DNA from: a virus
Virus record (IMG/VR): IMGVR_UViG_3300047470_000535
Location: 1 to 31,840 of that record
Strand: one strand, 5' to 3'
DNA: 31,840 bases
Both the position numbers and the translations under genes were made by a program. The notes beneath the pieces are model-generated. The model searched no databases. It saw only the letters and a list, made by a program, of their open reading frames with translations, and was not told the DNA's origin. Within the stretch, counting starts at the first letter, position 1. Each line of letters opens with the position of its first letter. Positions 4,097 to 21,870 of the stretch are shown piece after piece.

Positions 4097-4117
4097 GATA
4101 CGGCCTTTTACATTTAC

Positions 4118-4133
4118 TGTATGAATGTACAGT
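4118..4133. promoter_or_regulatory. LexA (SOS) box between umuD and the SRAP gene
   Basis: The sequence CTGTATGAATGTACAG fits the CTG-N10-CAG consensus with good symmetry. It lies 22 bp upstream of the umuD start, and 64 bp upstream of the divergent SRAP start. Repression of umuD by LexA is well supported by family knowledge; control of the SRAP gene from the same box is inference. Confidence 0.9.
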
Positions 4134-4197
4134 TAACTTTGTAGGACGCTTGCGGTCAATTTTTCTGTACGGGATTTCGACAAGCGGAGAGGTGCGT

Positions 4198-5374: not shown

Positions 5375-5455
5375 ATGATCGTCGAGCTTATTGAACGCAC
5401 CCTCACCTTAGCCATCGAAATTGTTAGACTGATTCAGATGCTAATTCGAGATTAA
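5375..5455 (+). CDS. 26-residue amphipathic peptide
   Basis: The ATG is preceded by TTGGAGAA, a good ribosome site about 6 nt away. The product (MIVELIERTLTLAIEIVRLI, then QMLIRD) has regularly spaced charges in an aliphatic helix, so it should be amphipathic and membrane- or coil-forming. Its last 32 nt overlap the 3' end of the convergent methylase gene. The promoter candidate at 5269-5298 would drive it. No family is recognised. It could be a moron peptide, a toxin-like peptide or a leader. Confidence 0.5.
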   Translation: MIVELIERTLTLAIEIVRLIQMLIRD

Positions 5456-6245
5456 ACAGGCCTCCAAGAGCAGAAGGTATCCAGTTCATGATGACAAGTT
5501 CACCGGTTACCTCTGCTTTCCCCTGGCGCTGATTGGAGTTGCTGTAACGAATTCTCAGGTGCTCGAAATGAAAGCCCTCGAAAGCACGTCGAATGTCAGG
5601 GTGGTCATTGATGCTGACCATCACCTTGCCTTTGCAGCGCCGCATAAAGTCGGCCATGCGCTCGTAATTCTCAAATGGAAAGTCCACGCCATAACCGGCT
5701 GTCTGCCAGTAAGGCGGATCCATGTAGTGGAACGTGTGAGCGCGGTCGTAGCGTTCTGCGCATTCAAGCCAGGGGAGATTTTCGACGTAGGTCCCGGACA
5801 GCCGTTGCCAAGCGGCCGAGAGATTCTCCTCGATCCGCAGCAGATTGATGGCCGGGCCAGTGGTCGCGGTACCAAACGTCTGCCCCGTCACTTTGCCGGC
5901 GAAGGCATGGTGCTGCAGGTAAAAGAATCGCGCGGCGCGCTGGATGTCAGTGAGGGTTTCCGGGCGGGTCATCTTCTGCCACTCGAACACCTGCCGAGAA
6001 CTGAGTGCCCATTTGAACTGGCGCACGAATTCTTCCAGGTGGTTCTGCACGACGCGGTAAAGCGTCACCAGGTCGCCGTTGATGTCGTTGAGGACTTCAA
6101 CAGGCGCGGCCTGGGGACGCATGAAATAGAGCGCGGCGCCGCCGGCAAAGACTTCAACGTAGCATTCGTGAGGTGGGAAGAGCGGGATAAGGCGGTCGGC
6201 CAGGCGGCGTTTGCCGCCCATCCAAGGGATGATGGGTGTGGACAT
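5424..6245 (-). CDS. dam: D12-class DNA adenine N6-methyltransferase (Dam-like)
   Basis: The enzyme transfers a methyl group from S-adenosylmethionine to adenine in DNA. The 273-residue product has the D12 family layout: PIIPWMGGKRRL near the N-terminus, the SAM-binding FAGGAALYF (residues 33-41) and the catalytic DPPY (176-179). There is no partner restriction gene, so it is probably an orphan methylase, used by phages to evade host restriction or change gene control. It lies downstream of the lysis genes with its own LexA box 18 bp before the ATG. The ribosome site is weak. Confidence 0.93.
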   Translation of the reverse strand: MSTPIIPWMGGKRRLADRLIPLFPPHECYVEVFAGGAALYFMRPQAAPVEVLNDINGDLVTLYRVVQNHLEEFVRQFKWALSSRQVFEWQKMTRPETLTDIQRAARFFYLQHHAFAGKVTGQTFGTATTGPAINLLRIEENLSAAWQRLSGTYVENLPWLECAERYDRAHTFHYMDPPYWQTAGYGVDFPFENYERMADFMRRCKGKVMVSINDHPDIRRAFEGFHFEHLRIRYSNSNQRQGKAEVTGELVIMNWIPSALGGLFNLELASESV

Positions 6246-6394: not shown

Positions 6395-6937
6395 TTACTT
6401 CGGTGTAGAGACTTCTTTTGCGTAGGCCTGACAGGCCCGCAGGGCGATCAATCCTTGGTCGCCGGCATCGGTTATTCCGATAATTCGTTGAGCATGCGCT
6501 GGGTCAAGTTGGGCTCTTGTGGTGCCATGAACCACGCGGCCGGTGGCGGTGGTGGCTGACATTGAACAGCTGCCGGTGGTTTCGGTGGCGGCGAGTACGA
6601 CTGACAGCCGCATATCAGCAGTAGCCAGGCGATCACGCAGACGAGCCTGCTTGGTTTGCTCATCGGTCAATTCCTTGTGGTGGGTTTCGTCTTTGTTCTG
6701 CAGACGCCGCTCCAGAGCCAGGCGCTTGTCCTGCTCGATACGCTGCACGGCGGCAGACGCTTGGGATAACTCGTTAAGGGTGTCCGCCTGCAATCGGGCC
6801 TGGCGCTCCAGTTCGCGGCCATAACGCCAGTCCTGGGCTGTCCAGGCCAACGCAGCAGATCCGGCGGTCACCGACAGCAACAGCACGACGACGGCGGCGA
6901 TACGGAACTGCGCGGGGATCAAGTCGAGTAGACGCAT
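6395..6937 (-). CDS. Rz: Rz-like inner-membrane spanin
   Basis: Rz with Rz1 bridges the envelope and disrupts the outer membrane at the end of lysis. The 180-residue product has one N-terminal membrane anchor (about residues 12-32, IAAVVVLLLSVTAGSAALAW) and then a long charged periplasmic coiled coil (ELERQARLQADTL through EQTKQARLRDRLAT). The ATG at 6937 is chosen for its GAGG site and because it overlaps the end of the endolysin gene by 19 nt. The Rz1 gene is nested inside in another frame. Confidence 0.88.
   Translation of the reverse strand: MRLLDLIPAQFRIAAVVVLLLSVTAGSAALAWTAQDWRYGRELERQARLQADTLNELSQASAAVQRIEQDKRLALERRLQNKDETHHKELTDEQTKQARLRDRLATADMRLSVVLAATETTGSCSMSATTATGRVVHGTTRAQLDPAHAQRIIGITDAGDQGLIALRACQAYAKEVSTPK
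6472..6663 (-). CDS. Rz1: Rz1-like outer-membrane lipoprotein spanin (nested in Rz)
   Basis: A 63-residue product wholly inside Rz in another frame. It has a lipoprotein signal peptide with lipobox LICGC, so lipidated Cys20 becomes the mature N-terminus. A Pro-rich segment (SPPPKPPAAV, QPPPPPAA) follows, typical of Rz1. The protein pairs with Rz to complete the spanin complex. The full nesting inside the periplasmic part of Rz is the lambda-type arrangement. Confidence 0.9.
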   Translation of the reverse strand: MSKPSRLVCVIAWLLLICGCQSYSPPPKPPAAVQCQPPPPPAAWFMAPQEPNLTQRMLNELSE

Positions 6938-7482
6938 AACACCGCCCTCGCCCTGCCCCACAACTGCAGGCGATCTTCCAGGCCGTTGAGCCCGCCATTG
7001 ATCCGGCGGGTGATGGTGTTGAACTGCTCTTGATCCGCGAGTACGTTCAGCCCGTTCACCGACCAGAACCACGCAGCTGACTCTGCCGCCCACTGCGGCT
7101 GCTCGAGCAGCTCAGGCGTGCCAAGCAATCGCTCATCGCCGAACAATGCCAAGCTGCAGCGCAGGTAGTTGTCGTGGCCGGTGATCTGGATCAGCCCGCG
7201 CCCCCGATAGCGTTGGCCGTCACCGTCGGCTGCAGGCGTGTTCCCCAGCTTGGCCGCAAGCGCGCCGGTGTCGTACTTGCTGAGGTATTGACCACTCCCC
7301 AGCTCACGCACGTACTGCAGCTGGCCCGACTCGTGGCCGATCTGGGCGAGGAATGCCGCCTGGCGCTTCGGTGTGTCGATCTTTCGATTCGCCATGGCCG
7401 CGTTTAGGGCGGATACAAAAACGCCGGCTTGGCGGCCGGCGTTCGGGAGGATCTGCAGCAACTGCTGCTGGGTGATGGGCAT
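6919..7482 (-). CDS. Phage endolysin, glycoside hydrolase family 19
   Basis: This enzyme cleaves peptidoglycan during lysis. The 187-residue product begins MPITQQQLLQ; the start at 7482 is chosen for its AGGAG site 6 nt upstream. GH19 features are IGHESGQ with probable catalytic Glu51, a second Glu60 in VREL, and the RGRGLIQITG loop (93-102). No signal peptide or anchor is seen, so it needs the holin for release. The holin gene lies about 20 kb away. A strong hairpin lies within codons 13-21. Confidence 0.9.
   Translation of the reverse strand: MPITQQQLLQILPNAGRQAGVFVSALNAAMANRKIDTPKRQAAFLAQIGHESGQLQYVRELGSGQYLSKYDTGALAAKLGNTPAADGDGQRYRGRGLIQITGHDNYLRCSLALFGDERLLGTPELLEQPQWAAESAAWFWSVNGLNVLADQEQFNTITRRINGGLNGLEDRLQLWGRARAVLCVYST
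7417..7443 (-). terminator. Terminator-like hairpin inside the endolysin gene
   Basis: A perfect 9-bp GC-rich stem (7420-7428 with 7435-7443, arms AACGCCGGC/GCCGGCGTT) and a 6-nt loop are followed on the minus strand by more T (five T in all, two of them in the stem). It lies in codons 13-21 of the endolysin. It could act as an intragenic attenuator or only reflect the Asn-Ala-Gly-Arg-Gln-Ala-Gly coding sequence. Confidence 0.4.
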
Positions 7483-7536
7483 ACAAGCTCCTAACATGAG
7501 TAGCCCGCACTTGGCGGGGGTTGTGGTGCGCGACCG

Positions 7537-8586
7537 CTACGCCAGGCTGACGACTTTGACTGGCTTAGCGGCTTTCTTCGTTTTCTTGCCTTTGGCTTTG
7601 GCCTTGCCCTTTTTACCCCCGTTGCACTCGACGGTGGTGGACCAGCCGGCTTGGGTGAATGTCTGCTCGACTGAATCCACCAGATACTCGCCATCAAGCC
7701 CAACCTTGAAGCCCTGGGCGTTAATTGAGCGCTCGGCGAAAAGATCCGTGCGGCCGTCCATTTCCAGACGCACGCCGGCCGTCGAGCGGTTGAACGCAGC
7801 CAAGCGCGCCTTAGCCGCGGATTCGGCGGCGGTCTTGTTCGGGTGAATATGGCGGTCGGTGTGCACTGCCGGCAGTCCATCCGGCACGTCATCGTTGTCC
7901 AGGGATACAACCGATAACTTGCCCGTCTTCTTGTCCTGATGCTTGGCCGCAACGGTCTTGTGCGCGTTACGGTCGCCCAGGCGAAATTGCCAGCGGCTTA
8001 CGTCGCTGCGCGCGATGGTGATCGCGGTAATCACCTTGCCGCTGGCACTCAGGCCCGCTTGGCGCTGCATCACCATCAACTTACCGTCGCCCACCTTGGC
8101 GGTGCAGTCGTACTGTTTAGCCAGGCGCGTGACAAAGCTGAAGTCAGATTCGTGGAGCTGGTCAGCCCTGGCGACTTTCGTGGCGATGGTGCAGGCCGGT
8201 GTCCAGCCGTTGCGCGCCGCAATGTCAGAAACGATTTTCGACAACGGCACGTCTTCCCAGCTACCGCTGCGGATTGACTTGCCAGTACCGCGCATGTCGC
8301 TCGCCTTGCCACGGATAACGATGGTGTCCGGCGGGCCGGACATCTCGATTTCATCGACCACATAGCGCCCCAGGCGCACCAGGGACGTTTCGGCATAGCC
8401 TAGGTAGACCTCGATCCCGGCGCCGCGCTTGGGCAGCGTTACCAGGCCGTCGCGGTCATCAATGCGCAACTCAAACTCGTCCGACTCCATGCCGGGCTTA
8501 TCCGTGGTGCGCAACAGCAAAAGCCGATCGTTAATCAGTGAAGTAATGTCGGAACCGTTCGCGACGATTCTAAATTGGGGAGTCAT
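7537..8586 (-). CDS. D: P2-type late control/baseplate protein D
   Basis: A 349-residue homologue of P2 gpD, a baseplate hub protein of contractile tails. It shows the typical start (TPQFRIVANGSDIT), the DRLLLLRTTDKPGMESDEFELRIDDRD segment and HESDFSFVTRLAKQYDCTAKV in the core. The Lys-rich end (KKGKAKAKGKKTKKAAK) is a basic tail. It lies at the end of the P2-like tail block after U and X. A terminator-like hairpin precedes it, and its ribosome site is weak. Confidence 0.93.
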   Translation of the reverse strand: MTPQFRIVANGSDITSLINDRLLLLRTTDKPGMESDEFELRIDDRDGLVTLPKRGAGIEVYLGYAETSLVRLGRYVVDEIEMSGPPDTIVIRGKASDMRGTGKSIRSGSWEDVPLSKIVSDIAARNGWTPACTIATKVARADQLHESDFSFVTRLAKQYDCTAKVGDGKLMVMQRQAGLSASGKVITAITIARSDVSRWQFRLGDRNAHKTVAAKHQDKKTGKLSVVSLDNDDVPDGLPAVHTDRHIHPNKTAAESAAKARLAAFNRSTAGVRLEMDGRTDLFAERSINAQGFKVGLDGEYLVDSVEQTFTQAGWSTTVECNGGKKGKAKAKGKKTKKAAKPVKVVSLA

Positions 8587-8601
8587 AGGGCATTGGCCAA
8601 T

Positions 8602-8621
8602 AAAAAAACCGCACTGGGCGG
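8602..8621 (-). terminator. Intrinsic terminator between X and D
   Basis: On the minus strand, arms CCGC/GCGG around a 5-nt loop are followed by seven T. It is short but well formed, and resembles the hairpins at 14381, 18708 and 21849. Confidence 0.65.
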
Positions 8622-8685
8622 GCTCTAGGGAAAGGAGGCGTCACGCGTAACGAACGCCAGGCCTATCTGGATGCGTTGAACTGAA

Positions 8686-8892
8686 TTAATCCCAAAGGGC
8701 CACTTGCTCATCAACAGGGCCTGGCAGATCCGGCAAGACAATCACCACACCGGCACGGTAAGGCTGATCCTCGTCCGCTAGGCCCTGATTGGCCGCAAGC
8801 ACTGCCTCAACACTGCCCACCAGATGGCCATAGAAGTTATGGCAAATGGTATCGAGAAGATCCCCGTCAGATGTTCTGCATGTCGTCGCCAT
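8686..8892 (-). CDS. X: P2-type tail protein X (LysM-like)
   Basis: A 68-residue protein matching the tail X family: TSDGDLLDTICHNFYG, then VEAVLAANQGLADEDQPYRAGVVIVLPDLP, a LysM-like fold of the baseplate hub. The ATG at 8892 fits the upstream GGAG better than the TTG three codons earlier. It overlaps the end of U by 26 nt, as in related P2-like tails where U, X and D are adjacent. Confidence 0.9.
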   Translation of the reverse strand: MATTCRTSDGDLLDTICHNFYGHLVGSVEAVLAANQGLADEDQPYRAGVVIVLPDLPGPVDEQVALWD

Positions 8893-9712
8893 AGCGCACA
8901 AACTCCAAGGTAAACGCCTGTTTGCGGGGGATACCGCCCTGCATCAGCGCGCTCTGGTCTTCGTCAATGGTCTTGAGGCACCAGGTGCCCAGCACAACGC
9001 CATAACCCGTGGTCAGGGTCACCGGCTTGAGCTGGGAGCCTATCGAACGCAACGTGTTGAGCTGTTCCAGACCGCCACGGTAGCCCGGAAAAATATCGCC
9101 CTTGAGTGTGATCTTCTCGTCACCCATGCCCACGGCCTGCTGGGCCGACCGACGCGTCAGGCGCTCCTGAGAGGCCCAGCGGTATTCAGTCGAGCGGCGC
9201 AGCGAGTCAAAGGCCGCCGTATCAAGGTTGAAGTAATACGGCTGCGCCTTCGGGTCCAGCGGCTGAATGATCAGCAGATGGGGGAACGGCTTCACCGCCT
9301 CTTTCGCCGGCGTGCCGTCCGTAGCAAACGCACCAGTGGGCAGGATATTTGCCAGCGACGGGTCAATCTTGCCGGCGATCTTGTTGATCGCGGTAGCTGC
9401 CCGCCCTGCCTGCTCTTTCAAGGTGCCCAGGCGCTCGTCAATCTGCGACAGGGCGCGCGTAGCACGGTTGTAGGTGGCCACCACCTGGCCAACCTTGGCT
9501 TGGGCAGTGGCAATACCCCGCATGACTCGCTGTAGCTTCTCTCCCACGGCAGGACCAATAAACGGCAGATCCTCCAGCTCGTTGGCCGCGCCGGTGATTT
9601 CGCTGATCGCACCGTTTACCGGCCCAATCACCCCGTCGATACTGCGCCGACCCGCTTCGCCGGCCGAGGCCAGGTACTTCAGGCCAGACTGTAGCTGTGC
9701 CAGTGATTCCAT
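8867..9712 (-). CDS. U: P2-type tail protein U with N-terminal extension
   Basis: The C-terminal half (about residues 140-281) is P2 gpU-like: PHLLIIQPLDPK, RRSAQQAVGMGDEKITLKGDIFP, and ending in FTLEFVRYGDD. Unlike classical gpU (about 160 residues), it carries roughly 130 extra N-terminal residues that look helical (LAQLQSGLKYLASAGEAG, then ATAQAKVGQVVATYNRATRA). GpU is needed in tail completion at the baseplate end. The ATG has GGGGGG just upstream. Confidence 0.88.
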   Translation of the reverse strand: MESLAQLQSGLKYLASAGEAGRRSIDGVIGPVNGAISEITGAANELEDLPFIGPAVGEKLQRVMRGIATAQAKVGQVVATYNRATRALSQIDERLGTLKEQAGRAATAINKIAGKIDPSLANILPTGAFATDGTPAKEAVKPFPHLLIIQPLDPKAQPYYFNLDTAAFDSLRRSTEYRWASQERLTRRSAQQAVGMGDEKITLKGDIFPGYRGGLEQLNTLRSIGSQLKPVTLTTGYGVVLGTWCLKTIDEDQSALMQGGIPRKQAFTLEFVRYGDDMQNI

Positions 9713-9721
9713 ATTCCCCCC

Positions 9722-12208
9722 TTAGAGATGCGGCGCGTCGTAGAGCTGTCGGTTTTCGAGCTGCTGGGAGATTTCCCGTCGATGCTGCTCCAGCAGCGGC
9801 TGCAACCTGGCCGCAAGCTCATTCGGGTCTTTCACATCGCCCTGCACCGTCAGCGTAAAGGGCGCGCTAATGTCCACTTTGGGCTCGATCTTGGCCGGCT
9901 GGACCTTCGCCACCACGGCCGCCGCAAGTGGCGCCGCTACCGCATCAGCGCTGGCCTGGGGCATCATCATGGACCGCGCAGCATCACCCGGATTGACCGC
10001 GCCAGGCGCCGTAGGCAAAGCCCCCTGTCCGGGATTGGTAAGCATGAGCGGGCCGGTGCGCGACGGGGCAAAAGACTTGGCAGTATCCCCAAGCACCGGC
10101 GGGATGTCCTTGCCGGCATCCTTCATCATCAATGGACCGGCCACGGGCATGACCTTCTTGCTTTCGTCAGAGCCAAACATCGACTTGCCGATGGCACCGC
10201 CCAGGGCATCACCGCCCAAGCTCCCTAGATACCCGCCAATCAGGCCGCCCAAGATGGTGCCGATTACCGGTACCGCCGACCCGATTGCCGCACCGGCCGC
10301 CGCACCGGCAAGAGTGCCAGCAAGCCCGCCGGCCGCCGCGCCATAACCTTCAGCTTTTTCGTCCTGGGTTTCAGCGTTGTCGTAAGTGTCTTTGACCTTA
10401 AAGCCGGCCTCAATTACGGCCAACACTGCCGGCCCCTTCAGGCCCGCGCCAACGCCACGGCCTGGACTTCGGCCACGGCCGCCACCCCTGCCCTTGCCCT
10501 TCCCATCCTTACCGCCAGCGTCGTCGACGCCGCCCAAATCCATGCCACCAGATCCACCAACAGGCATGTTGGTGACAATGACTTTCTGCGGGATATTCGG
10601 GTTACCCATCAGCGAGCCGCGCCCAAGGTTGAGCAACCCCTTGGCAATCTTGAATCCGCTCATCGCGGCCTGAAACGCGATCACGGCCGCCACGGCGGCG
10701 CCGATCCCCGTCACAACCCGGGGCGACTCGTCCGACAGCTTGGCCAGCCCCTGGGTGACATAGGCCAACCCATCCGCCACCTTGTCAGTGACTGGCCGGA
10801 ATGCGTCACCAATGGCGCGCATGGCCTCGTCCATACCCTGGGCCATTTCCGCCCATTTTTGCGCTGACGCCTGCCGGCGTTCCTCAAGGTTCTTATCAAG
10901 GATCCCGGTGGCACTGGCCGAGTCTTTCTTGAGCTGCGCATACAGCTCTTTGTTTTGCATGAAGGCCGTCAAAGCGCCCTTAACCTGCATATCCGCAAAC
11001 AGATCCCCGGTCCGCAAAGCCTGCTCCAAGGAGGCAATCATGGCCTTGGCTTTCTCGGGGTCAGTCTCCTTACTGATCTTCGCCGTAGCGGCGGCCATCG
11101 CGGCGGCCTTCTTCGGATCCGTCGCCGCGATGTACTTCTGTGCCAGCTCAAAGCTGGATTCCAGGGTTGATTTACCGTTCTGCAGGCCGGTATTCATCGA
11201 CCCTTGGTAGTCAATCCCAGCATCCTTGTAGGCCTTGACCGTATCGCCAGAACCGATTTTCTCCATCCAGTTCTTGAGGTTGTTGGCCGCTTCGTCGGCA
11301 CCGCCGGCGGTCTTCATTTGCACCTGAAGCATTGAGCCCAGCTGCGTGACCGCATCCATGCCAGTAATGCCGATCTTGCCCATACCTGCCAGCAGTTCGG
11401 GGAACCAGCGCGCCATGTCGGCCGCTTCAAAACTACCCGCCTGGCCCTGATAGGCGATAGCCTCAAGCGCCTTTTGCATCACGGCCGGGTCGGAGATTTT
11501 GGCGTTCTGCCCCAAGGCGTTAATCATGCGGGCCGTTTCGCCGCCATCCGCCCCCTGCCCTACGGAAAATTTGGCCGCCACTGGTGCGTACGACAGCGCC
11601 TTATCCAGCTCCATGCCGGCCCCCACCAGGGCGTTGACCACCTCGGCCACCTGATTGCGGGCCATGCCGGAATCGCGCGACGTACCAATAATCGTCTTGG
11701 CCATCTGCGCTTCTTCGGGCTTGTTGGCAATGTTCGCCTTGATCGCAATGTCACGAATGATCGCGCCAAAGTCCGCGCTAACCTTCGTCGGAATGGCCAT
11801 CGCTGCCGTGGCGGCCGCCGCCTGGCCGATGCTGCTTCTCATCTGCTGCTTGCCAGCGTCGAGCTGCATATGGCCCTTGGCCTTAAGCTCGGCCTTGGTT
11901 GCCGCCTGGCCCATGGCAGCGTAAGCCTTGGTCAGGTTGCGCACTTCAACGCCCTGCTTACGCAGGCCATCCAGATTATTCTCCAGCTTTCGCCGCAGCG
12001 CCTCGGCGCCCTTGTCCCCGGCCATGTGCGCCTTGCGCCATTCATCGCGCAAACGCATGGTTTCGCCGATGGTCTTTTGCAGCACCCGCGCCTTGTTGCC
12101 TTGTTCCTCCAGCTTCTTGATTTTGTTGCTGACGTCCTTGAACGCCGCCCCTACCGTCGAGCTGACGGCCCCGCCAATCACCAGGCCGAGAGCAAGTTTA
12201 TTCGCCAT
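9722..12208 (-). CDS. T: Tail tape measure protein T
   Basis: The longest gene in the window, with 828 residues. Tape measure proteins set tail length and lie inside the tube. It begins with a coiled coil (KDVSNKIKKLEEQGNKARVLQ), continues with long Ala-rich helices and a TP901-type core, and has a Gly/Ala-rich hydrophobic region at about 600-680 (AAGGLAGTLAGAAAGAAIGS). Length is close to P2 T (815 residues), so a tail of comparable length is expected. It follows E/E' and precedes U, the P2 order. Confidence 0.93.
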   Translation of the reverse strand: MANKLALGLVIGGAVSSTVGAAFKDVSNKIKKLEEQGNKARVLQKTIGETMRLRDEWRKAHMAGDKGAEALRRKLENNLDGLRKQGVEVRNLTKAYAAMGQAATKAELKAKGHMQLDAGKQQMRSSIGQAAAATAAMAIPTKVSADFGAIIRDIAIKANIANKPEEAQMAKTIIGTSRDSGMARNQVAEVVNALVGAGMELDKALSYAPVAAKFSVGQGADGGETARMINALGQNAKISDPAVMQKALEAIAYQGQAGSFEAADMARWFPELLAGMGKIGITGMDAVTQLGSMLQVQMKTAGGADEAANNLKNWMEKIGSGDTVKAYKDAGIDYQGSMNTGLQNGKSTLESSFELAQKYIAATDPKKAAAMAAATAKISKETDPEKAKAMIASLEQALRTGDLFADMQVKGALTAFMQNKELYAQLKKDSASATGILDKNLEERRQASAQKWAEMAQGMDEAMRAIGDAFRPVTDKVADGLAYVTQGLAKLSDESPRVVTGIGAAVAAVIAFQAAMSGFKIAKGLLNLGRGSLMGNPNIPQKVIVTNMPVGGSGGMDLGGVDDAGGKDGKGKGRGGGRGRSPGRGVGAGLKGPAVLAVIEAGFKVKDTYDNAETQDEKAEGYGAAAGGLAGTLAGAAAGAAIGSAVPVIGTILGGLIGGYLGSLGGDALGGAIGKSMFGSDESKKVMPVAGPLMMKDAGKDIPPVLGDTAKSFAPSRTGPLMLTNPGQGALPTAPGAVNPGDAARSMMMPQASADAVAAPLAAAVVAKVQPAKIEPKVDISAPFTLTVQGDVKDPNELAARLQPLLEQHRREISQQLENRQLYDAPHL

Positions 12209-12244
12209 GTGCGCGCCCTATACGTCGGGTAGATCAACAGCGGC

Positions 12245-12451
12245 TCAATCCGTGAGCCACCACACCATCACGTTAAAGGGCATGGCCAGGATCTCGGCAG
12301 ACGAGAAACCCGTCTCTTTTGCCAAGCGCTTGGCCAGCACCTTAAGCGTGCCCTCGTTACACGTCGTCTTCTTCAACCAGGCGAAAATAGCCCGCCTGAA
12401 GGCGCATGTAGTCCTTGTATTTGAGGGCAGTGAGTTCGGCCTCGGTAGCCA
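12245..12451 (-). CDS. E' frame: C-terminal extension of the tail assembly chaperone
   Basis: This frame lies between E and T, overlaps the 3' end of E and has no ATG start. After a TAA at 12454-12452 it stays open to TGA at 12247-12245. Its last part reads as protein (EGTLKVLAKRLAKETGFSSA, then EILAMPFNVMVWWLTD), like the small E' products of P2-like tails. E' is usually made by programmed frameshift from E. Here E' is offset +1 (equivalently -2) from E, not the -1 used by P2. Independent initiation, for example at a GTG near 12340, is possible. Confidence 0.65.
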   Translation of the reverse strand, partial: WLPRPNSLPSNTRTTCAFRRAIFAWLKKTTCNEGTLKVLAKRLAKETGFSSAEILAMPFNVMVWWLTD

Positions 12452-12665
12452 TTAGCAGGCTGCAAAACAAGTTCAGCTCCACCTTTTCATGGTCACCATT
12501 GCCGGCGATCTTGGCGGCCATAACGTCCTTCACGCTGGGCGCCCGCATCATCAGCTTATCGGTCACAACCCCATTGAGATTGGCCTTATGCTTGAGCGTT
12601 ACGGTAACGCCGTCGTCGCTCAGGACAAGCCAGGATGGCAGCGGCGCTGTAAGAGAATCGGTCAT
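12357..12665 (-). CDS. E: Tail assembly chaperone E
   Basis: A 102-residue homologue of P2 gpE, a chaperone that coats the tape measure protein during tail assembly. It has the family start (APLPSWLVLSDDGVTVTLKH), a KDVMAAKIAGNGDHEKVELNLF core and an acidic end (LVEEDDV). The ATG is preceded by AAGGATT. It sits between the tube and T genes as in P2, and the overlapping E' frame begins within its last third. Confidence 0.88.
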   Translation of the reverse strand: MTDSLTAPLPSWLVLSDDGVTVTLKHKANLNGVVTDKLMMRAPSVKDVMAAKIAGNGDHEKVELNLFCSLLMATEAELTALKYKDYMRLQAGYFRLVEEDDV

Positions 12666-12676
12666 GTCATCAATCC

Positions 12677-13180
12677 TTAGAGGCCCAGGGCCGAACGTTC
12701 AGCGGCCAGTTGATCAACACCGTTGATCACCTGCACCATGTTGGCAAAGTCGATTTCGAACATCACACGACCGTCGATTTCGAGCTTGTAGTAAGTGACG
12801 GCCACGGCGTGCTTGATTTCGGCCTTGTCGCCCGGCTTCCAATCGCCCATATCCACTTCTTTGAGCGATCCGCGCAGGGTCACAGTGACCGACTTAACGG
12901 TGCCTTTCTGGCCCCTGAACGAGCCACGAAAAACGAGGTTGCACGCGGTCTGATCCGCCAGGCCGAAGAACTTCAACGCCTCTTTACGCACGCCGTTGGT
13001 GGTGAATGCCGCCTCCAGCTTTTCCAAGCCGGTGGGCAGGTCGACAGGGCCGCTCATGCCGCCGCCCCGGTATTCTTCGCTCTTGATCGCCAGTTTGGGC
13101 AACGTCATCGATGGCACGTCACCGGAAAAGCTCACGCCGTCACAGAACATGACGCAGTTGGTCAACATTTCAGGAATCAT
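12677..13180 (-). CDS. FII: Major tail tube protein FII
   Basis: A 167-residue P2-type tube protein. Family features include the PEMLTNCVMFCDG start, SMTLPKLAIKSEEYRGGGMSGP and LEIDGRVMFEIDFANMVQVINGVD near the end. It polymerises around the tape measure inside the sheath. It directly follows the sheath gene with a 12-nt gap and has GGGGGCC upstream of its ATG. Confidence 0.94.
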   Translation of the reverse strand: MIPEMLTNCVMFCDGVSFSGDVPSMTLPKLAIKSEEYRGGGMSGPVDLPTGLEKLEAAFTTNGVRKEALKFFGLADQTACNLVFRGSFRGQKGTVKSVTVTLRGSLKEVDMGDWKPGDKAEIKHAVAVTYYKLEIDGRVMFEIDFANMVQVINGVDQLAAERSALGL

Positions 13181-13192
13181 TACTCGGCCCCC

Positions 13193-14359
13193 TTAGGCTG
13201 CTTCAAGTACTTCGGTCAGCCACTCGTTGGTGACTTCGATCAGGAAATTCGGGTTCTCGGCCGGCGGCACGTCGGTAAAGCGAATGCGCCAGTAGACTTT
13301 GCCCTGCTCCAACTGGGAGGCCGTGTTCATTTCAGTGTCTGCGTACACCTCAAAGTTGATCACAGCGCCGGCGTTTTTCTGGTCACGCATGAAGGCCTGA
13401 AGCCCTTCGGTCACGTCCGACACATAGGTTTTCGTGATCGAGCGGTCTACCGCCCACTTGTGGCCGGCCTGGATCGCATCCATGAGGATGTCGCAAGTTC
13501 GCACGCGGGTGACAAACGACCACTTGGCATCGGCCGAGCAGGTGCGGTTACCCCACAGGCGGTAGCCGCCGTCACGGATGATCGTGGTGATGTTCGCGTT
13601 ATTGAGCAGGTTGGCCCGACACGTTGCGTCACCGTCCAAGTACTCCACCGGGCGGGTGGTACCGGTGATACCCACAAACTCTTTGTTGGATGGAGACGCC
13701 CAATAGCCGTACTCGGCATCGGTCCAGGCAAACAGGCCTGCCACCCACGCCGAGGCTGGGGCGTCCACGGTCGCGCTTTCGACGGTGCTCCAGAACTGCA
13801 CGCCCGGATCCACCAAGTAAATGCGCTTACTGCCGAAGTTCAGCGCGTAGGCCATAGCGGCCTCATCGGTAGTATTCGGCCCATCGATAATGGCAATCGC
13901 GCGCAGCTTGCCGGCCAGGGCGTCCATTGCGGTGGCCACCGCTTGCGTGGCCGAATGCCCCGGGGCAATCAGCAACTTAGGCTGGGCATTGTGTCGGCTC
14001 TTGCCGTCCAACAGCGCCTGAAGGCCCGTGCGCTGCCCATCCGCCAGAACGCCACCGATGATGGCCGACGTTTGCAGCGCGGCGTCAGCAAGCTTAGGGA
14101 CGCCAACGGCGACGATTACAGCCTTCGCCCGCACATAGATCGCCTGGCACGCCCGGGTGATAGCCGAGTCAGCCCCGAACGCGGCAATGGCCTCACGCTC
14201 GGACGTGATCAGCTTAAGCTCGCCAGCCTTGGCACTGCCGCCACCCAGTACGCCAGGGGTGAAGGTGTCGCACAGACCAATGATCGAGGACGACGGGAGC
14301 GAGATAGTGCGCGCCCCGGTGTCGATCAGCGAAGTGGTGATGCCGTGAAAGAAACTCAT
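13193..14359 (-). CDS. FI: Contractile tail sheath protein FI
   Basis: The 388-residue sheath protein makes this a myovirus-type tail. It begins MSFFHGITTSLIDTGARTIS, has EYGYWASPSNKEFVGITGTTRPVEYLDGD and RDGGYRLWGNRTCSAD in the core, and ends with the conserved handshake-type tail (RIRFTDVPPAENPNFLIEVT, then NEWLTEV). The ATG at 14359 suits the GGAG 10 nt upstream better than a TTG three codons earlier. Confidence 0.95.
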   Translation of the reverse strand: MSFFHGITTSLIDTGARTISLPSSSIIGLCDTFTPGVLGGGSAKAGELKLITSEREAIAAFGADSAITRACQAIYVRAKAVIVAVGVPKLADAALQTSAIIGGVLADGQRTGLQALLDGKSRHNAQPKLLIAPGHSATQAVATAMDALAGKLRAIAIIDGPNTTDEAAMAYALNFGSKRIYLVDPGVQFWSTVESATVDAPASAWVAGLFAWTDAEYGYWASPSNKEFVGITGTTRPVEYLDGDATCRANLLNNANITTIIRDGGYRLWGNRTCSADAKWSFVTRVRTCDILMDAIQAGHKWAVDRSITKTYVSDVTEGLQAFMRDQKNAGAVINFEVYADTEMNTASQLEQGKVYWRIRFTDVPPAENPNFLIEVTNEWLTEVLEAA

Positions 14360-14380
14360 AAGGCTCAATCTCCAGAAACG

Positions 14381-14403
14381 AAAAAGCCCCGCATGAGCAG
14401 GGC
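14381..14403 (-). terminator. Intrinsic terminator between tail-fibre assembly gene and sheath gene
   Basis: On the minus strand, a GC-rich 7-bp stem with one mismatch and a 4-nt loop is followed by five T. It lies just before the sheath start, within the late operon. Confidence 0.6.
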
Positions 14404-14460
14404 CGTAGGTTGTTCGTGTTAGTTGTACTTGGAGCGCCCCTCAAAAAACGGTAAGGGCGA

Positions 14461-14892
14461 CTACACCGGTTCAGCGGCAAACCAAGAAGGCAAAACAGGG
14501 CGATGAGCAGACGCTGGAAACAGCGAGCCGTTAGGCCAATTGCGCAGCTCGCTTCGGTAAGCCTGCAACTGGCTGTACTGCTCGGAAGTTAATGTGGTCA
14601 CTTCCGAAAGCTCCAACTCGTCGCGGTGACGCATAACAAGAGGGTCAGTGAGTGCCAATTGTGCATCCCGCCAAACGCGCTCTTTCGCCTGTAGTTGATC
14701 CAGGGAGGGGCCAGGACGATCAGCAAGTTCCGGCATACCGTCCTCGCCTTTGACGATTACAAAGCCTGCCTCTAATCCCGCAAGCAAAGCTATACGCGTT
14801 TCCTGATCGACCTCGACGGCATCGGGAGGAATAACTTGATTGTATTCAGGGCTAAACCAACCCGACAATTCGTAACAGTAATAAAACCGCAT
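14461..14892 (-). CDS. Tail fibre assembly chaperone (Tfa family)
   Basis: A 143-residue product with the family signature: MRFYYCYELSGWFSPEYN at the start, a helical QAKERVWRDAQLALTDPLVM middle, then SEQYSQLQAYRSELRNWP, close to the typical consensus for Caudoviricetes tail fibre assembly proteins. It helps fold and trimerise the adjacent fibre, whose gene ends 2 nt upstream of its ATG. The ribosome site is weak, so translation may be coupled to the fibre gene. Confidence 0.92.
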   Translation of the reverse strand: MRFYYCYELSGWFSPEYNQVIPPDAVEVDQETRIALLAGLEAGFVIVKGEDGMPELADRPGPSLDQLQAKERVWRDAQLALTDPLVMRHRDELELSEVTTLTSEQYSQLQAYRSELRNWPNGSLFPASAHRPVLPSWFAAEPV

Positions 14893-14894
14893 AT

Positions 14895-16661
14895 TTAATT
14901 ACCCCAAGCCAAGTAATACAGCGTCTGATTACTCGCGCCGCTGGTGGACGAAACGTCTTGAGTCAATCTGATCACTGACTGAGATATAAGCCCCGCATAA
15001 GCGCTGTAGTTGCCGTTGCTGTTCCATCCCGACACGCCCATCCCAGCAATAGCCCCCCGAATACTGTTGAAAGAAATAGGTAGCGTCACGTCAGTGGTTC
15101 CCTCAGGCGCGACCACAGCACTACCGAACTGAATGATGAACCCTCCCGGCGTATCAGGTATCCGAATAAAGTCATTTGCCGAGAACACGCGCTTTGGAAA
15201 TAGGGCCGATATCAGGCGCTGAACAAACTGGGTGTTGGCAATTTGCTCATTGTTGGAGCCCTCGCCAGACAGCGGAGCGGTTGGGGCTTTCGGCTTGCCT
15301 GACAGCAGGGCACTGTCCAAGGGAGCTTTGGCCGCAAGAGCGTTGTTTATGGTGGTGGCAAAGTTGGGGTCTTGGCCCAACGCATCGGCTAACTCTTTGA
15401 GCGTATCCAGCGCGCCAGGCGCGGAGTTTACTAACGCCGCGATGGCAGCTTGAACGAATGCCGTATTCGCAATCTGATCGTTGTTCGCCCCGACAGCAGG
15501 GGTAGGCGCCTTGGGAACTCCCGAAAGCGCTGGGCTTGCCAGCGGCGCCAACAACCCCATGGCGTCGACCAGCTTTTTCAAGGTGTTCAGCGAGCCGGGG
15601 GCGCCACCCACGAGCGCGGCAATCGCAGCCTGGACAAATGCCGCATTAGATATTTGCTCATCGCTAGTACCGGGTAAAGCTGTCGGCGCCTTAGGTACTC
15701 CCGACAACTTCGGGCTATCGAGCGGAGCGGCGTCAACCAATCCGTACCCTACAAGCGTCGTCGGATTACTACCACCAAGCACCCTGCCCATGCTATCGAC
15801 GGTAACCGACCGATACGTGCCGGCATAAACTCCGCTTCGACCAGCGAGCTTTTCGAAAAACAGCCGAGAGGTTCCCAGCACAATCGGGCCGTCAGACGTA
15901 AGCTGAAAAACGCTGTCACCGTTTGCCACACCTTTTTCGACCGGCACCATAAGGCCCGGCGTGACCTCAATGCTTACATCTGCATCCTGTGACCTGGCCC
16001 AGGCGCCGCTGTGAGAAACGATGTAAATGCCATTACCCTTGGATTCAAGCTGATCTTTAACTAGCACCCTGTCCTTGTCAGCGGTCGCCTCACCGTCAAC
16101 TATTTGAGGCCCACTGAGCGTGATGGGGCCAGTAGTTGCCAACAGCACAGAGTTTTTAAAGTCCTGTTTGTTGAAAGCCTCAGCAACAGCTAAATCAACA
16201 TACTCACGCGTCGCCAGCACAACCGCTGGATCAATTTTAAGAACGATGTTTCCAGTGCTGGAAACGATGAAATTCATACGCACAATTTGCGTGCGGCCAG
16301 ACCCCTGGGATAACACTGGTTTGAAGCTAGGCGCGCAGTTAGAAACAGCCACCAAATCGCCGTCCGCGTCATACACGCCTATTTCACGAATCCAGAAGCC
16401 ACCCACATCCGGCGGAATTACTTGTTCTGCGATGATAACGGCGTCATTTACTGGATCGACGCGAACCTGATTAAGCGGGGCACGACGACGCTCATTGATG
16501 AGCTTTGTTTGTGTGCTGCTGGGAATCGGGTCTGTGCCATTGGCATCGCCAACACCCAAGGCTGTAAGGCTCCAGGCCGTACCGAGGGCATTAGCATTAG
16601 CGAGTTTGGCAGCCCCCACGTTCGTGAGGATCGCCATAAATTGCGAGTTTTGATCAATCAT
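14895..16661 (-). CDS. H: Tail fibre protein H
   Basis: A 588-residue P2 H-type fibre that recognises the host surface. The N-terminal ~160 residues are the tail-collar/fibre attachment domain (FMAILTNVGAAKLANA, EQVIPPDVGGFWIREIGVYD). A beta-rich middle and three repeated collar segments follow (LSGVPKAPT to AFVQAAIAAL). The C-terminal ~95 residues (from FSANDFIRIPDTPGG) look like a gp53-type receptor-binding tip. The ATG overlaps the end of I (ATGA). The chaperone gene follows directly. Confidence 0.92.
   Translation of the reverse strand: MIDQNSQFMAILTNVGAAKLANANALGTAWSLTALGVGDANGTDPIPSSTQTKLINERRRAPLNQVRVDPVNDAVIIAEQVIPPDVGGFWIREIGVYDADGDLVAVSNCAPSFKPVLSQGSGRTQIVRMNFIVSSTGNIVLKIDPAVVLATREYVDLAVAEAFNKQDFKNSVLLATTGPITLSGPQIVDGEATADKDRVLVKDQLESKGNGIYIVSHSGAWARSQDADVSIEVTPGLMVPVEKGVANGDSVFQLTSDGPIVLGTSRLFFEKLAGRSGVYAGTYRSVTVDSMGRVLGGSNPTTLVGYGLVDAAPLDSPKLSGVPKAPTALPGTSDEQISNAAFVQAAIAALVGGAPGSLNTLKKLVDAMGLLAPLASPALSGVPKAPTPAVGANNDQIANTAFVQAAIAALVNSAPGALDTLKELADALGQDPNFATTINNALAAKAPLDSALLSGKPKAPTAPLSGEGSNNEQIANTQFVQRLISALFPKRVFSANDFIRIPDTPGGFIIQFGSAVVAPEGTTDVTLPISFNSIRGAIAGMGVSGWNSNGNYSAYAGLISQSVIRLTQDVSSTSGASNQTLYYLAWGN
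15200..15730 (-). repeat. Threefold repeat inside the tail fibre gene
   Basis: The protein segment LSG-PKAPT, a DEQI/NDQI/NEQI motif and a -FVQ- helix recurs three times in tandem with intervening spacers. At DNA level the units are diverged but alignable near 15700, 15510 and 15290. Such repeats lengthen fibres and can recombine. Confidence 0.8.
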
Positions 16662-17263
16662 GAATACACATCCAGGGTGTCTATGCTGTGCTCACGACCG
16701 GCCGCACTGATATAGCCGGTCACGTCGATATCACGCTGTACTGGTGGATAGACGTCGATTACGTCGCCGTCATAGAGGGCAACGCCGATATTTACGGCGC
16801 CACGCGTTTCAAGGCTTATCGCAAGGCCTGTCATATGCCGACTGACGGGCTTGGCGTCATCAATGAGCCGGGCAAGCTCTTCGTACATCTCTTCGGTAAT
16901 ACCAGTGTCCAGAACGCCGACTTTCAGCGCGAACGTACCGGGAACACCCGCCGGCGCCGTCTGCCACCATTCAACGGCTTCGATCAGATAACCCAGCGGC
17001 TCGACAACGCGGCGCAAAGCGCCAATCGTGCCCTTGTGCTTATGGATGTAATACGAGGCCTTGATAGCGGCACGCTTGGTCGCATCGCTCCACCGATAAT
17101 CCCAGCGGTCGACCGACCAGGCCCACGCCAAATGCAGCAGCAAGTGAGCCGGACATGTATCGGCGTTGTAGAGCGTGCGCAGCGGAACAATGGTTTTTTC
17201 GTAGAGCGCCGCCTCAATGGCCCGCTCTAGCTTGGTGCTATTGCTGGGCAGTAGGCTTTTCAT
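16658..17263 (-). CDS. I: P2-type tail protein I (baseplate)
   Basis: A 201-residue homologue of P2 gpI, which forms the baseplate edge with J and anchors the fibre. It shows SKLERAIEAALYEKT-like helices near the start, LAWAWSVDRWDYRW and TIGALRRVVEPLGYLIEAVEWW. It begins inside the end of J (26-nt overlap) with GAGG upstream, and its stop overlaps the H start. Confidence 0.93.
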   Translation of the reverse strand: MKSLLPSNSTKLERAIEAALYEKTIVPLRTLYNADTCPAHLLLHLAWAWSVDRWDYRWSDATKRAAIKASYYIHKHKGTIGALRRVVEPLGYLIEAVEWWQTAPAGVPGTFALKVGVLDTGITEEMYEELARLIDDAKPVSRHMTGLAISLETRGAVNIGVALYDGDVIDVYPPVQRDIDVTGYISAAGREHSIDTLDVYS

Positions 17264-18140
17264 CCGCCAACCTCACGCTGTAACCAGTGCAGTACGCGGC
17301 CTGGGCTCTAGTAGGAGCCAAGTCGACCCACCCAGGCAGATCGACACGGGAAACGCCGGCAACATGCACCTGGGCGTCTACAGCAGAACGGGCCACCTCA
17401 ACGCCAAGACGCTTGCGGGGGTTTACCCATTTCGAAAGGCGGCTTAGGGCTTCGGCCAGAGCCGCGTCACCTTCTGGACCGGCGCTGTTCATATGAAGGA
17501 TTGCGTCAATTCGGTAATGCAGAATTTCGGCGCCCTGGACTGTCACCCGATCACCCAGCGGCCGCACGTTATCGTCATTAAGAGCTGTAGCCACCGTGGC
17601 CAACAGCTCCGGCGTGGGTGTCCCGTCCCCTTCCGTGCTCAACACCGTTACGGTAACGCTCGCCGGCGACGGACTTTCCGCCGTGGCATCGCGCACAAGG
17701 CCGGACGCGTTACGCGCATGCAGGATGTAGCTGTTACGCGGCCCCGCAGTGGTCAGCCCCTCATATGCCAACTGGATGCGCTCACGAAACGAATCATGAT
17801 CCTCAAGCACTTGCGGCACGGGCGGCACCGCCAGAAGGTTCTCGGGCTGGATCACCAGACGTTTCAGGTTGACGTTTGCGCCCAGCTGATCGAGGTCGGC
17901 ACCAATGGCGTGCGCCAACAAAAGCGCCTTGCACGCATCGTTAACCCGGGCGCGGTTGCCAACCTTGTTATAAGCACCAACCTCCAGCAATTTGGTAACT
18001 GGATCGCTTTCAAGTGCGGCGTTCCAATTGTCGCCCATGTAGTCACGAAACGCTGACAGCCCTTCTTCATAAACCCCTTCGAAGTCCAGCGGCTCAAGCA
18101 CCTCCGGGGCCGGCAAGGCCGACAAGTCCACGATGCTCAT
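17238..18140 (-). CDS. J: Baseplate assembly protein J
   Basis: A 300-residue P2 gpJ homologue, part of the baseplate wedge. It has LSALPAPEVLEPLDFEGVYE at the start, the YNKVGNRARVNDACKALLLAHAIGADLDQL core and a C-terminal VNPRKRLGVEVARSAVDAQ segment. A strong GGAGGT lies 8 nt before the ATG. The W-J-I-H order matches P2. Confidence 0.94.
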   Translation of the reverse strand: MSIVDLSALPAPEVLEPLDFEGVYEEGLSAFRDYMGDNWNAALESDPVTKLLEVGAYNKVGNRARVNDACKALLLAHAIGADLDQLGANVNLKRLVIQPENLLAVPPVPQVLEDHDSFRERIQLAYEGLTTAGPRNSYILHARNASGLVRDATAESPSPASVTVTVLSTEGDGTPTPELLATVATALNDDNVRPLGDRVTVQGAEILHYRIDAILHMNSAGPEGDAALAEALSRLSKWVNPRKRLGVEVARSAVDAQVHVAGVSRVDLPGWVDLAPTRAQAAYCTGYSVRLADEKPTAQQ

Positions 18141-18463
18141 ACACTTACCTCCAAGACAAAGCTATCGCCCAGGTACTTGCCGGAAATGATCATGTTTATT
18201 TTCCCGTCCAGCAGCGACAGCGCCGTCACACGCTCAAGCTTCAGGCGCGGCTCATGTAGGCCGAGGGCATGAGCCGCTTCGGCCTGCACCGCACTTTTCC
18301 AACCGGCATTGATTGGCAAGTCAACGAACTGGCGTAACTTGCTGCCGTATTCCGGCCGGTGCCGGCGACTGTCCAGGGGCGTACTCAAGATGTCCGCGAT
18401 GGACTGTCGCAAATGCTCAATGCCGGATATGGGCTGCCCGGTGTGGCGATCCATTCCGATCAT
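18137..18463 (-). CDS. W: Baseplate wedge protein W (gp25-like)
   Basis: A 108-residue P2 gpW/T4 gp25-type wedge protein. Seen here are DRHTGQPISGIEHLRQSIADI, LSTPLDSRRHRPEYGSKL (the diagnostic R-x-PEYGS) and LINMIISGKYLGDS-like beta strands near the end. Its stop overlaps the J start by 4 nt. Confidence 0.94.
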   Translation of the reverse strand: MIGMDRHTGQPISGIEHLRQSIADILSTPLDSRRHRPEYGSKLRQFVDLPINAGWKSAVQAEAAHALGLHEPRLKLERVTALSLLDGKINMIISGKYLGDSFVLEVSV

Positions 18464-18468
18464 CTGGC

Positions 18469-18690
18469 TTAGCCCTCCTGGGCGGCGTATTCGCTGCTGG
18501 CCTTCAGGAAGGCCACTGCCTCTTTGTCAGACTCCGGCACCACCACCAGGGCGTTGACCACTGGATAAGTGCATTCGGTGCCAGGCACAACCAGCGTGCG
18601 CGATGTGTAGACCAGATCGCGGAACGTCAGGGACGCCGACGCGGCCGGGGCTTGTTCGTCGGTTACGGGCTTGTCGATGGTCTTGGCCAT
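18469..18690 (-). CDS. Small hypothetical tail-module protein between V and W
   Basis: A 73-residue product beginning MAKTIDKPVTDEQAPA. The start at 18690 is chosen for GGAG 7 nt upstream rather than a longer frame start. It has no hydrophobic segment. The C-terminal half looks like alternating strand and helix (RTLVVPGTECTYPVVNALVV, ESDKEAVAFLKASSEY). The frame ends 5 nt before W. No family is recognised; position suggests a tail or baseplate accessory role. Confidence 0.7.
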   Translation of the reverse strand: MAKTIDKPVTDEQAPAASASLTFRDLVYTSRTLVVPGTECTYPVVNALVVVPESDKEAVAFLKASSEYAAQEG

Positions 18691-18707
18691 GATTTTCTCC
18701 GGGCATG

Positions 18708-18728
18708 AAAAAACCCGCACGCGGCGGG
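18708..18728 (-). terminator. Intrinsic terminator after gene V
   Basis: On the minus strand, CCCGC/GCGGG arms around a 5-nt loop are followed by six T. It lies in the gap between V and the small hypothetical gene, inside the late operon. Confidence 0.65.
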
Positions 18729-18744
18729 CTGTAGATGATTTAGG

Positions 18745-19350
18745 TTAATGCTTGTGGTGGTTGTCGCTGTTACCGGTTGCCAGGATATCGGCGGCGCCGG
18801 TGATGGTCTGCGTTACGTGTAACGGGCCGTCGATCTCAACCGCGCCGATCAACGATATCTGAGGCGACTTAACCGCCGCCCATCCGGGCGCCAAGTCAAA
18901 CTCTGTGCCGCCCACCGTGGCATTCACCGCGTTATCCGTAACGGTAACCACTGTGCTGCCCACTTTGATGGTGACCGTACCCGTGGGCAGCGTGATGGTG
19001 TACGTCTTGGCCTCCCAGTCGTAAACCAGGGAGCCGCCATCATCAAACCGCCAGACCTCTACATGGTCGCGGTTATCTGGCGGGCCGCCAGCATTGCCGT
19101 ACAGCCCGGGAATAAACGTGCCTATGCCCGCCTGGCCGCTGGGGTTGAACAACACTCCTTGCTCGCCCAGGCTGGGCGCGCGCCAGTGCCGCGCCTTGCC
19201 GGCCGCCAGGCTATGCCAACGCACCCAGGCGCTGGTCCATTCGCCATTGCTGACACGCACCGCCGGCGCCGCCAGGTCCACGCCGACCACCACACAAGGC
19301 ATGAGCATGGCGGCGATCATGCGGTCATGCTCCGCCTCGGCGTAACTCAC
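18745..19350 (-). CDS. V: Baseplate spike protein V
   Basis: A 201-residue P2 gpV-type tail spike that pierces the outer membrane. It has an OB-fold-like N-terminal half (VRWHSLAAGKARHWRAPSLG, EQGVLFNPSGQAG) and a beta-helical end (YTITLPTGTVTIKVGSTVVT). The last residues, DNHHKH, fit the HxH iron-binding apex known in P2 gpV. The start codon is GTG with GAGG upstream, overlapping the previous stop. Confidence 0.93.
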   Translation of the reverse strand: MSYAEAEHDRMIAAMLMPCVVVGVDLAAPAVRVSNGEWTSAWVRWHSLAAGKARHWRAPSLGEQGVLFNPSGQAGIGTFIPGLYGNAGGPPDNRDHVEVWRFDDGGSLVYDWEAKTYTITLPTGTVTIKVGSTVVTVTDNAVNATVGGTEFDLAPGWAAVKSPQISLIGAVEIDGPLHVTQTITGAADILATGNSDNHHKH

Positions 19351-20831: not shown

Positions 20832-20833
20832 GG

Positions 20834-21829: not shown

Positions 21830-21848
21830 GGGGTACTCTCCAGAAACG

Positions 21849-21870
21849 AAAAATCCCGCACTCGGCGGGA
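21849..21870 (-). terminator. Intrinsic terminator between decoration and capsid genes
   Basis: On the minus strand, TCCCGC/GCGGGA arms around a 5-nt loop are followed by five T, just upstream of the capsid ribosome site. Confidence 0.65.

What the first reader, a model, noticed from the sequence alone, without database searches (positions are those of the whole stretch)
12245..12451. Tail chaperone E/E' overlap with an unusual +1 (or -2) offset
E' has no ATG start and overlaps E. Its frame is +1 relative to E, whereas P2-like and lambda-like chaperones normally use -1. A UUU-C sequence (12386-12383) is the type of site where +1 slippage can occur, and a -2 event as in Mu-like phages is another option. 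The overlap to search is 12357-12451.
Basis: partly seen in the sequence, partly recalled or inferred. Interest (0 to 1): 0.55.

Follow-up and report, generated by a model that had tools for sequence, protein, structure and literature searches.

The report
Forward-slipping ribosome site in phage tails
In Pseudomonas phages and phage-tail-like bacteriocins, the gene for a tail-building helper protein carries a strictly conserved four-letter spot (UUU-C) where some ribosomes very probably slip one base forward to make a longer version, whereas the related phages examined slip backward to make the same kind of protein.

Summary
E (12665-12357, minus strand) is a Phage_TAC_7 tail chaperone; E' is open in the +1 (= -2) frame (12451-12245) and overlaps its end. 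This is conserved, not an artefact: 296 fetched loci (236 distinct alleles; Pseudomonas viruses, genomes, an R2-pyocin record) have E' in +1, and each holds exactly one in-frame UUU_C in the overlap, nearly always UAY_UUU_CGY. UUU never becomes UUC there: 0 codon changes on a tree, against 24 in a control Phe column and 14 and 17 in the flanking codons. Five alleles moved UUU_C by one codon yet kept the fusion length. Under strict pairing no other codon re-pairs after +1 in over 6.4% of alleles, and none after -2 in over 6.8%. Half the alleles have no possible E' start after the site. No Shine-Dalgarno or downstream structure was found. Best explanation: programmed +1 P-site slippage (tRNA-Phe, UUU to UUC) making a 139-aa E-E' fusion. 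Relatives outside this clade use -1; the tube tree puts the +1 loci in one clade. The closest known sites are UUU_CGN sites of eukaryotic viruses. Slippage and the fusion protein are inferred, not measured.

The parts
12357..12665 (-). gene E, short tail assembly chaperone (102 aa), zero frame; stop TAA at 12359-12357
   Evidence: PF10109 E=1.2e-10, phrog_166 3.8e-14; lies between tube and tape measure genes
12245..12451 (-). E' open frame, +1 relative to E, ending TGA 12247-12245; no upstream ATG
   Evidence: same frame open in all complete +1 loci
12383..12386 (-). UUU_C slip site: P-site UUU 12386-12384, re-pairing to UUC 12385-12383
   Evidence: in-frame TTTC exactly once in the overlap of 296 of 296 +1 loci; TTT in 236 of 236 alleles; 0 codon changes by parsimony
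12375..12389 (-). conserved context TAT TTT CGC CTG GTT (E site, P site, A site and the next two codons)
   Evidence: codon counts
12248..12382 (-). E' extension as read after the slip, GCC (Ala95) to Asp139 of the 139-aa fusion
   Evidence: translated with TTTC read as one Phe; 45 codons after UUU
9722..12208 (-). tape measure protein, downstream neighbour
   Evidence: PF10145 5.6e-25
12677..13180 (-). tail tube protein FII, upstream neighbour
   Evidence: PF04985 5.8e-60
13193..14368 (-). tail sheath
   Evidence: PF04984 1.2e-29; only PDB hit R2 pyocin sheath PA0622, 633.8 bits

Best explanation
The E/E' overlap is a programmed +1 ribosomal frameshift site. Most ribosomes read E to its stop (102 aa). 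Some, with peptidyl-tRNA-Phe on UUU in the P site (UAU in the E site, CGC in the A site), let that tRNA slip one base forward onto UUC, trading a G:U wobble pair for G:C. Decoding resumes at GCC and yields a 139-aa E-E' fusion ending MVWWLTD. By analogy with lambda G/GT and P2 E/E+E', short and fused chaperone coat the tape measure protein and bring the tube subunit to it, and their ratio matters for tail assembly. Shown here: the frame, the conservation of UUU_C as nucleotides, the constant fusion length, the lack of a conserved alternative start, a single +1 clade among -1 relatives. Inferred: that ribosomes slip there, how often, that the fusion is made, and what it does.
For: 296 of 296 +1 loci hold exactly one in-frame UUU_C in the overlap; UUU in 236 of 236 alleles while the control Phe column is 113 TTC and 96 TTT. 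Parsimony changes 0 at the site, 24 at the control Phe, 14 and 17 at the flanking Tyr and Arg. Only this codon re-pairs at +1 in all alleles. Five alleles with UUU_C one codon later keep the fusion length (GYTFWC against GYFAWC). E' counted from UUC is 46 codons in 196 of 233 alleles although the E stop lies 6 to 23 codons after UUU. Trp at +2 of the new frame in 230 of 236. Stops in the +1 frame as near as 23 nt upstream of UUU. In the one element with TTC ATG in place of UUU_C, E' is also gone (L316/L318). Relatives with a recognisable E' outside the clade carry it in -1 behind T-rich sites; +1 loci are one clade, 100/98. Published reporter: +1 at a UUC slippery site about 12% in P. aeruginosa, all frameshift reporters below 5% in E. 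coli (PMC9481147).
Against: No protein or reporter data exist here. The alleles are related, so 236 is not 236 independent trials. The A-site codons CGC and CGU are common codons, so a slow A site is not obvious. No stimulator was found (no anti-SD excess, no downstream structure), leaving the efficiency unexplained. Synonymous redraws keep an in-frame TTTC in 47% of cases, so mere presence in one allele is weak. E' alone has no Pfam or PHROG hit.
Confidence: 0.9

Rival explanations
1. -2 frameshift, as reported for phage Mu, somewhere in the overlap; it gives the same frame with one extra residue.
For: The frame alone cannot tell +1 from -2. With generous G:U pairing, CAG at codon -4 could re-pair after -2 in 79.7% of alleles and the codon at +4 in 42.4%. 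-2 is documented for Mu (PMC5009743 passages).
Against: With strict pairing no codon re-pairs after -2 in more than 6.8% of alleles, and UUU in 0%. The codons at -4 and +4 vary freely, while UUU, which cannot use -2, is frozen.
Confidence: 0.04
2. E' is a separate small gene started inside or just after E from GTG or TTG, perhaps by translational coupling.
For: The window has TTG at 12376 and GTG at 12340 in the E' frame.
Against: 118 of 233 alleles have no ATG, GTG or TTG in the E' frame after UUU, and 97 of 233 have none anywhere before the last 33 codons. It would not explain the frozen UUU or the constant distance from UUU to the E' stop.
Confidence: 0.03
3. The frame is changed upstream of UUU, and UUU is conserved only because it is then read in both frames.
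For: If the shift lay upstream, U to C at the third base of UUU would turn Phe into Ser in E'.
Against: The codon just before UUU changes between TAT and TAC 14 times by parsimony, which would swap Ile and Thr in E'. No upstream codon re-pairs at +1 in more than 0.4% with strict pairing. Stops in the +1 frame lie as near as 23 nt upstream. The five alleles with UUU_C moved one codon changed the E residues but kept UUU_C.
Confidence: 0.02
4. Sequencing error, pseudogene or transcriptional slippage.
For: A single contig alone could carry an indel.
Against: 236 distinct alleles from viral contigs, genomes and a phage record share the offset. The run is only three U in the 56 alleles with UAC before it, short for polymerase slippage (recalled general knowledge).
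Confidence: 0.01

Closest known systems
P2-type E / E+E' frameshift of the tail operon (phage 186, Smp131 and others; Christie et al. 2002 recalled, not read)
   Same: Same gene order (tube, E, E', tape measure), E of the same family, E' without its own start, the fused product inferred; 186 and Smp131 records annotate a frameshift or joined E+E'
   Different: Those relatives have E' in -1 behind a T-rich site; here E' is in +1 at UUU_C
Influenza A PA-X, UCC_UUU_CGU, +1 (PMC3498833, abstract and results read)
   Same: UUU_C in the P site, CGN in the A site, +1, no known 3' stimulator
   Different: Eukaryotic ribosomes; E-site codon UCC, here UAY; direction proved by mass spectrometry there, inferred here; unrelated genes
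Plant amalgavirus UUU_CGN +1 motif (PMC5052127, abstract and discussion read)
   Same: UUU_CGN consensus found by comparison of sequences
   Different: RNA viruses of plants; joins a polymerase frame, not a tail chaperone
Phage Mu tail chaperone, -2 frameshift (PMC5009743 and PMC4378225, passages)
   Same: Tail chaperone fusion in the same frame class (+1 = -2)
   Different: Backward by two there; no -2 re-pairing codon conserved here
Haloarchaeal myovirus HSTV-2, stated to use very likely +1 (PMC5009743 passage; the original papers were not held)
   Same: +1 direction proposed for a contractile-tail virus chaperone
   Different: Archaeal virus; its site was not seen by me
Bacterial release factor 2 (prfB) CUU_UGA +1 site
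   Same: +1 slip of a P-site tRNA in bacteria; E-site codon UAU there is recalled
   Different: [quoted passage not shown] neither is present here

Membership tests
Tail assembly chaperone programmed frameshift (lambda G/GT, P2 E/E+E' kind) | Two overlapping frames between tube and tape measure genes, the second without a start of its own | tested here: met
   for the window; for relatives
Tail assembly chaperone programmed frameshift (lambda G/GT, P2 E/E+E' kind) | Zero-frame protein of a known tail chaperone family | tested here: met
   PF10109 and phrog_166
Tail assembly chaperone programmed frameshift (lambda G/GT, P2 E/E+E' kind) | Conserved slippery site at which tRNA can re-pair in the new frame | tested here: met
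   UUU_C in 236 of 236 alleles; re-pairing scan
Tail assembly chaperone programmed frameshift (lambda G/GT, P2 E/E+E' kind) | Fusion protein made and needed for tails | not testable with these tools
   needs protein data
P2-type -1 site | E' in the -1 frame behind a T-rich -1 slippery site | tested here: not met
   E' is in +1; the -1 frame has stops at 12375 and 12270
UUU_CGN +1 class (PA-X, amalgaviruses) | UUU_C in the P site followed by a CGN codon | tested here: met
   window TTT CGC; CGN in 230 of 236 alleles, CUG in 5, CAA in 1
UUU_CGN +1 class (PA-X, amalgaviruses) | Shift is +1, proved on the protein | not testable with these tools
   only comparative support
UUU_CGN +1 class (PA-X, amalgaviruses) | Works without a recognised 3' structure | tested here: inconclusive
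   fold z-scores of 70 nt downstream, mean 0.12, n=40 of 236 alleles; absence of a signal is not proof
Mu-type -2 site | Conserved codon that re-pairs after -2 | tested here: not met
   at most 6.8% of alleles at any codon with strict pairing
[quoted passage not shown]
   A site CGN, CUG or CAA
prfB-type +1 site | Internal Shine-Dalgarno just upstream | tested here: not met
   mean anti-SD energy -3.74 against -3.53 after synonymous shuffling

The most novel reading that the evidence does not exclude
A whole clade of Pseudomonas contractile tails, the R2 pyocin among them, runs on a bare UUU_C +1 slip with no stop codon, Shine-Dalgarno or RNA structure. It would be the first conserved bacterial family of the PA-X/amalgavirus class. 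It arose once from -1 shifting chaperones and kept the fusion protein while reversing the direction of the shift, perhaps because Pseudomonas ribosomes slip unusually often on UUU.
Probability: 0.6. Interest if true: 0.75.

Novelty: new variant of a known kind. Interest (0 to 1): 0.62.

Why it matters
+1 sites inside coding sequence are hard to spot, and PRFect (PMC10885494, passages) states that no general motif for forward shifts has been identified. Here one tetranucleotide is frozen across 236 alleles, with natural variants that move it by one codon, so the rule 'UUU_C with a CGN A-site codon' becomes directly testable in bacteria. A record whose sheath is that of the R2 pyocin, a particle with solved structures, carries it, and that record (OQ658366) annotates E but not E'. 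The case also suggests that the direction of a programmed shift can change in evolution while the fused product is kept.

Tried and rejected
-2 slippage, an independent start, slippage upstream of UUU, error or transcriptional slippage: see rivals. Looked for and not found: an internal Shine-Dalgarno and a downstream hairpin (the fold test used every sixth allele, 40 sequences). E' alone has no Pfam or PHROG match, so its kinship with E' of the -1 phages rests on position and on a tail motif aligned by eye, not on a profile hit. A structure prediction of the fusion was planned and not possible. Christie 2002, Xu 2004 and Nakayama 2000 are recalled; I did not see them, and whether they remark on R-pyocin E' is unknown to me. 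Searches for prior notice; in their listings and the passages read I saw no bacterial UUU_C tail-chaperone site.

Limits of the survey and rows dropped. One search found 508 relatives and kept the best 80. One search sampled 298 genomes of one genus and listed one short place (G139:C1:5089-5181) that I did not fetch. One search sampled 369 genomes of the class, 198 of the family. Of the 316 loci with an E hit, 296 count as +1: 292 by an automatic motif, and L108, L109, L124 (contig ends) and L286 (E' ends in a TWC motif) added by hand. The other 20: 10 are -1 by motif; L175, L176, L178, L182, L288 and L289 look -1 by eye; L174 is unclear; L316 and L318 have no E'; L037 is cut off before the E stop. 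L179-L181 had no hit to the E model; L179 and L181 are -1 by eye, and L180 has a run of T at the end of E and an annotated joined E+E'. The tree used 40 of 42 loci that I chose; L176 had no tube hit and L182 was too short. L286 was left out of the parsimony tree (235 of 236 alleles).

Full report
What is there. The window is an IMG/VR virus record of 31,840 bases. On its minus strand lie sheath, tube, E, E', tape measure, GpU-like and GpD-like genes. E is 12665-12357, 102 aa, and matches PF10109 Phage_TAC_7 (1.2e-10).

Is it conserved. A first set of 59 viral loci and two Pseudomonas genome loci showed E' in +1 wherever the locus was complete (which read 60 of the 61; L037 was cut off). I added 80 viral loci, of which 46 were new to the reading, and 20 pyocin-type viral loci; five phage records and 13 more; 298 genomes of the genus, 91 with a match; 369 of the class, 4 with a match, one of them already held; 198 of the family, 24 with a match. 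One script read 319 entries (318 loci and a piece of the window). 316 had an E hit, and 296 of these are +1: 292 by an automatic motif and 4 added by hand. 10 are -1 by motif; the other 10 are listed under Tried and rejected. Some places were fetched twice, so I use distinct alleles: 236.

The slip site. Each of the 296 has exactly one in-frame TTTC in the overlap. In the 236 alleles the codon is TTT in all. The codon before it is TAT 174, TAC 56, ACC 4, ACG 1, CGA 1; the codon after it is CGC 179, CGT 50, CTG 5, CGA 1, CAA 1. The same E proteins use TTC and TTT about equally elsewhere (163 and 155), and the Phe of LFxSL, found in 209 of 236 alleles, is TTC in 113 and TTT in 96. On a tree of 235 alleles, codon changes by parsimony are 0 at the site, 24 at that control column, 14 at the Tyr before and 17 at the Arg after. 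What is kept is the codon, not only the amino acid. Synonymous redraws of the E tail keep an in-frame TTTC in 47% of cases.

Natural experiments. Five alleles read like GGC TAC ACG TTT CTG GTG CGA instead of GGC TAT TTT CGC CTG GTG. UUU_C sits one codon later and the E' part is one codon shorter, so the fusion GYTFWC has the length of GYFAWC. L286, a distant locus, has CGA TTT CAA and a recognisable E' in +1. L316 and L318, one element present twice in a genome, read TAC TTC ATG; there UUU_C is lost, E' is absent, and an unrelated frame follows. The E stop lies 6 to 23 codons after UUU (counted on 269 loci), while E' counted from UUC is 46 codons in 196 of 233 alleles.

Why +1 and why there. 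Upstream of UUU the +1 frame is not protein-like: stops occur as near as 23 nt, 48 of 236 alleles have one at codon -11, and the codon before UUU would swap Ile and Thr. Downstream, Trp at +2 is kept in 230 of 236. From codon -8 to +8, with strict pairing, only UUU re-pairs after +1 in all alleles; the next best is 6.4%, and no codon re-pairs after -2 in more than 6.8%. With generous G:U pairing, CAG at -4 could move -2 in 79.7% and the codon at +4 in 42.4%. That is the best case for -2, and I judge it poor because those codons vary freely. 118 of 233 alleles have no ATG, GTG or TTG in the E' frame after UUU. I found no Shine-Dalgarno excess and no downstream structure.

Mechanism. tRNA-Phe reads UUU with a G:U wobble and UUC with G:C, so a +1 slip in the P site improves pairing. 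This was argued for influenza PA-X at UCC_UUU_CGU (PMC3498833, abstract and first part of the results read) and UUU_CGN was proposed for plant amalgaviruses (PMC5052127, abstract and discussion read). In P. aeruginosa a UUC slippery reporter shifted +1 in about 12% of translation events, while all frameshift reporters stayed below 5% in E. coli (PMC9481147, passages and one section read). That is a lead on why such a bare site could serve in Pseudomonas, not a test of this site. The role of the fusion is taken from lambda and P2 (PMC5009743, passages).

Evolution. In a tube-protein tree of 40 loci the 25 +1 loci form one side of a branch with 100/98 support; the other 15 are -1 loci or, for L174, unclear. 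The simplest reading is one change of direction with the fusion kept. Outside the clade every relative with a recognisable E' had it in -1. The record OQ658366 (L063) has TAC TTT CGC CTG GTG and E' in +1. Its sheath matches the R2 pyocin sheath PA0622 over all 386 residues at 849.9 bits. Its annotation lists E only. The window's sheath also has PA0622 as its only PDB hit.

Verdict. The kind (tail-chaperone frameshift) is known; the site type I know only from eukaryotic viruses; the combination was not seen in the papers searched, which leave out most subscription journals. No step has been shown at the bench.

Noticed in passing
L247, L253, L258, L270 and others (18 of the 269 +1 loci had two E domains): Some Pseudomonas tail loci carry two E-type chaperone domains in tandem in one frame of about 200 aa, with the single UUU_C at the end of the second.
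   Followed up: partly
L316 and L318 (G778, two copies of one element): E of the +1 family with TTC ATG in place of UUU_C; no E' follows, but an unrelated frame beginning MNREHELSAELD.
   Followed up: partly
window 7537-24835: A lambda-type head (portal PF05136, Clp-type protease PF00574) is joined to a tail whose sheath is closest to the R2 pyocin sheath among solved structures.
   Followed up: partly
window 5424-6245: D12-class adenine DNA methyltransferase (PF02086) next to the lysis and tail genes.
   Followed up: no
window 6395-7497: A chitinase-class (GH19, PF00182) lysis-type gene whose end overlaps a longer frame that looks like a spanin by eye; no Pfam hit for the latter.
   Followed up: no
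window 2942-4905: Frames that look by eye like UmuC (short, TTG start), UmuD/LexA and an SRAP (YedK-like) protein; not searched against families.
   Followed up: no
L174 (ON470596, Escherichia phage 569R10): PF10109-like E with no E' recognisable in either frame; its offset stays unclear.
   Followed up: no
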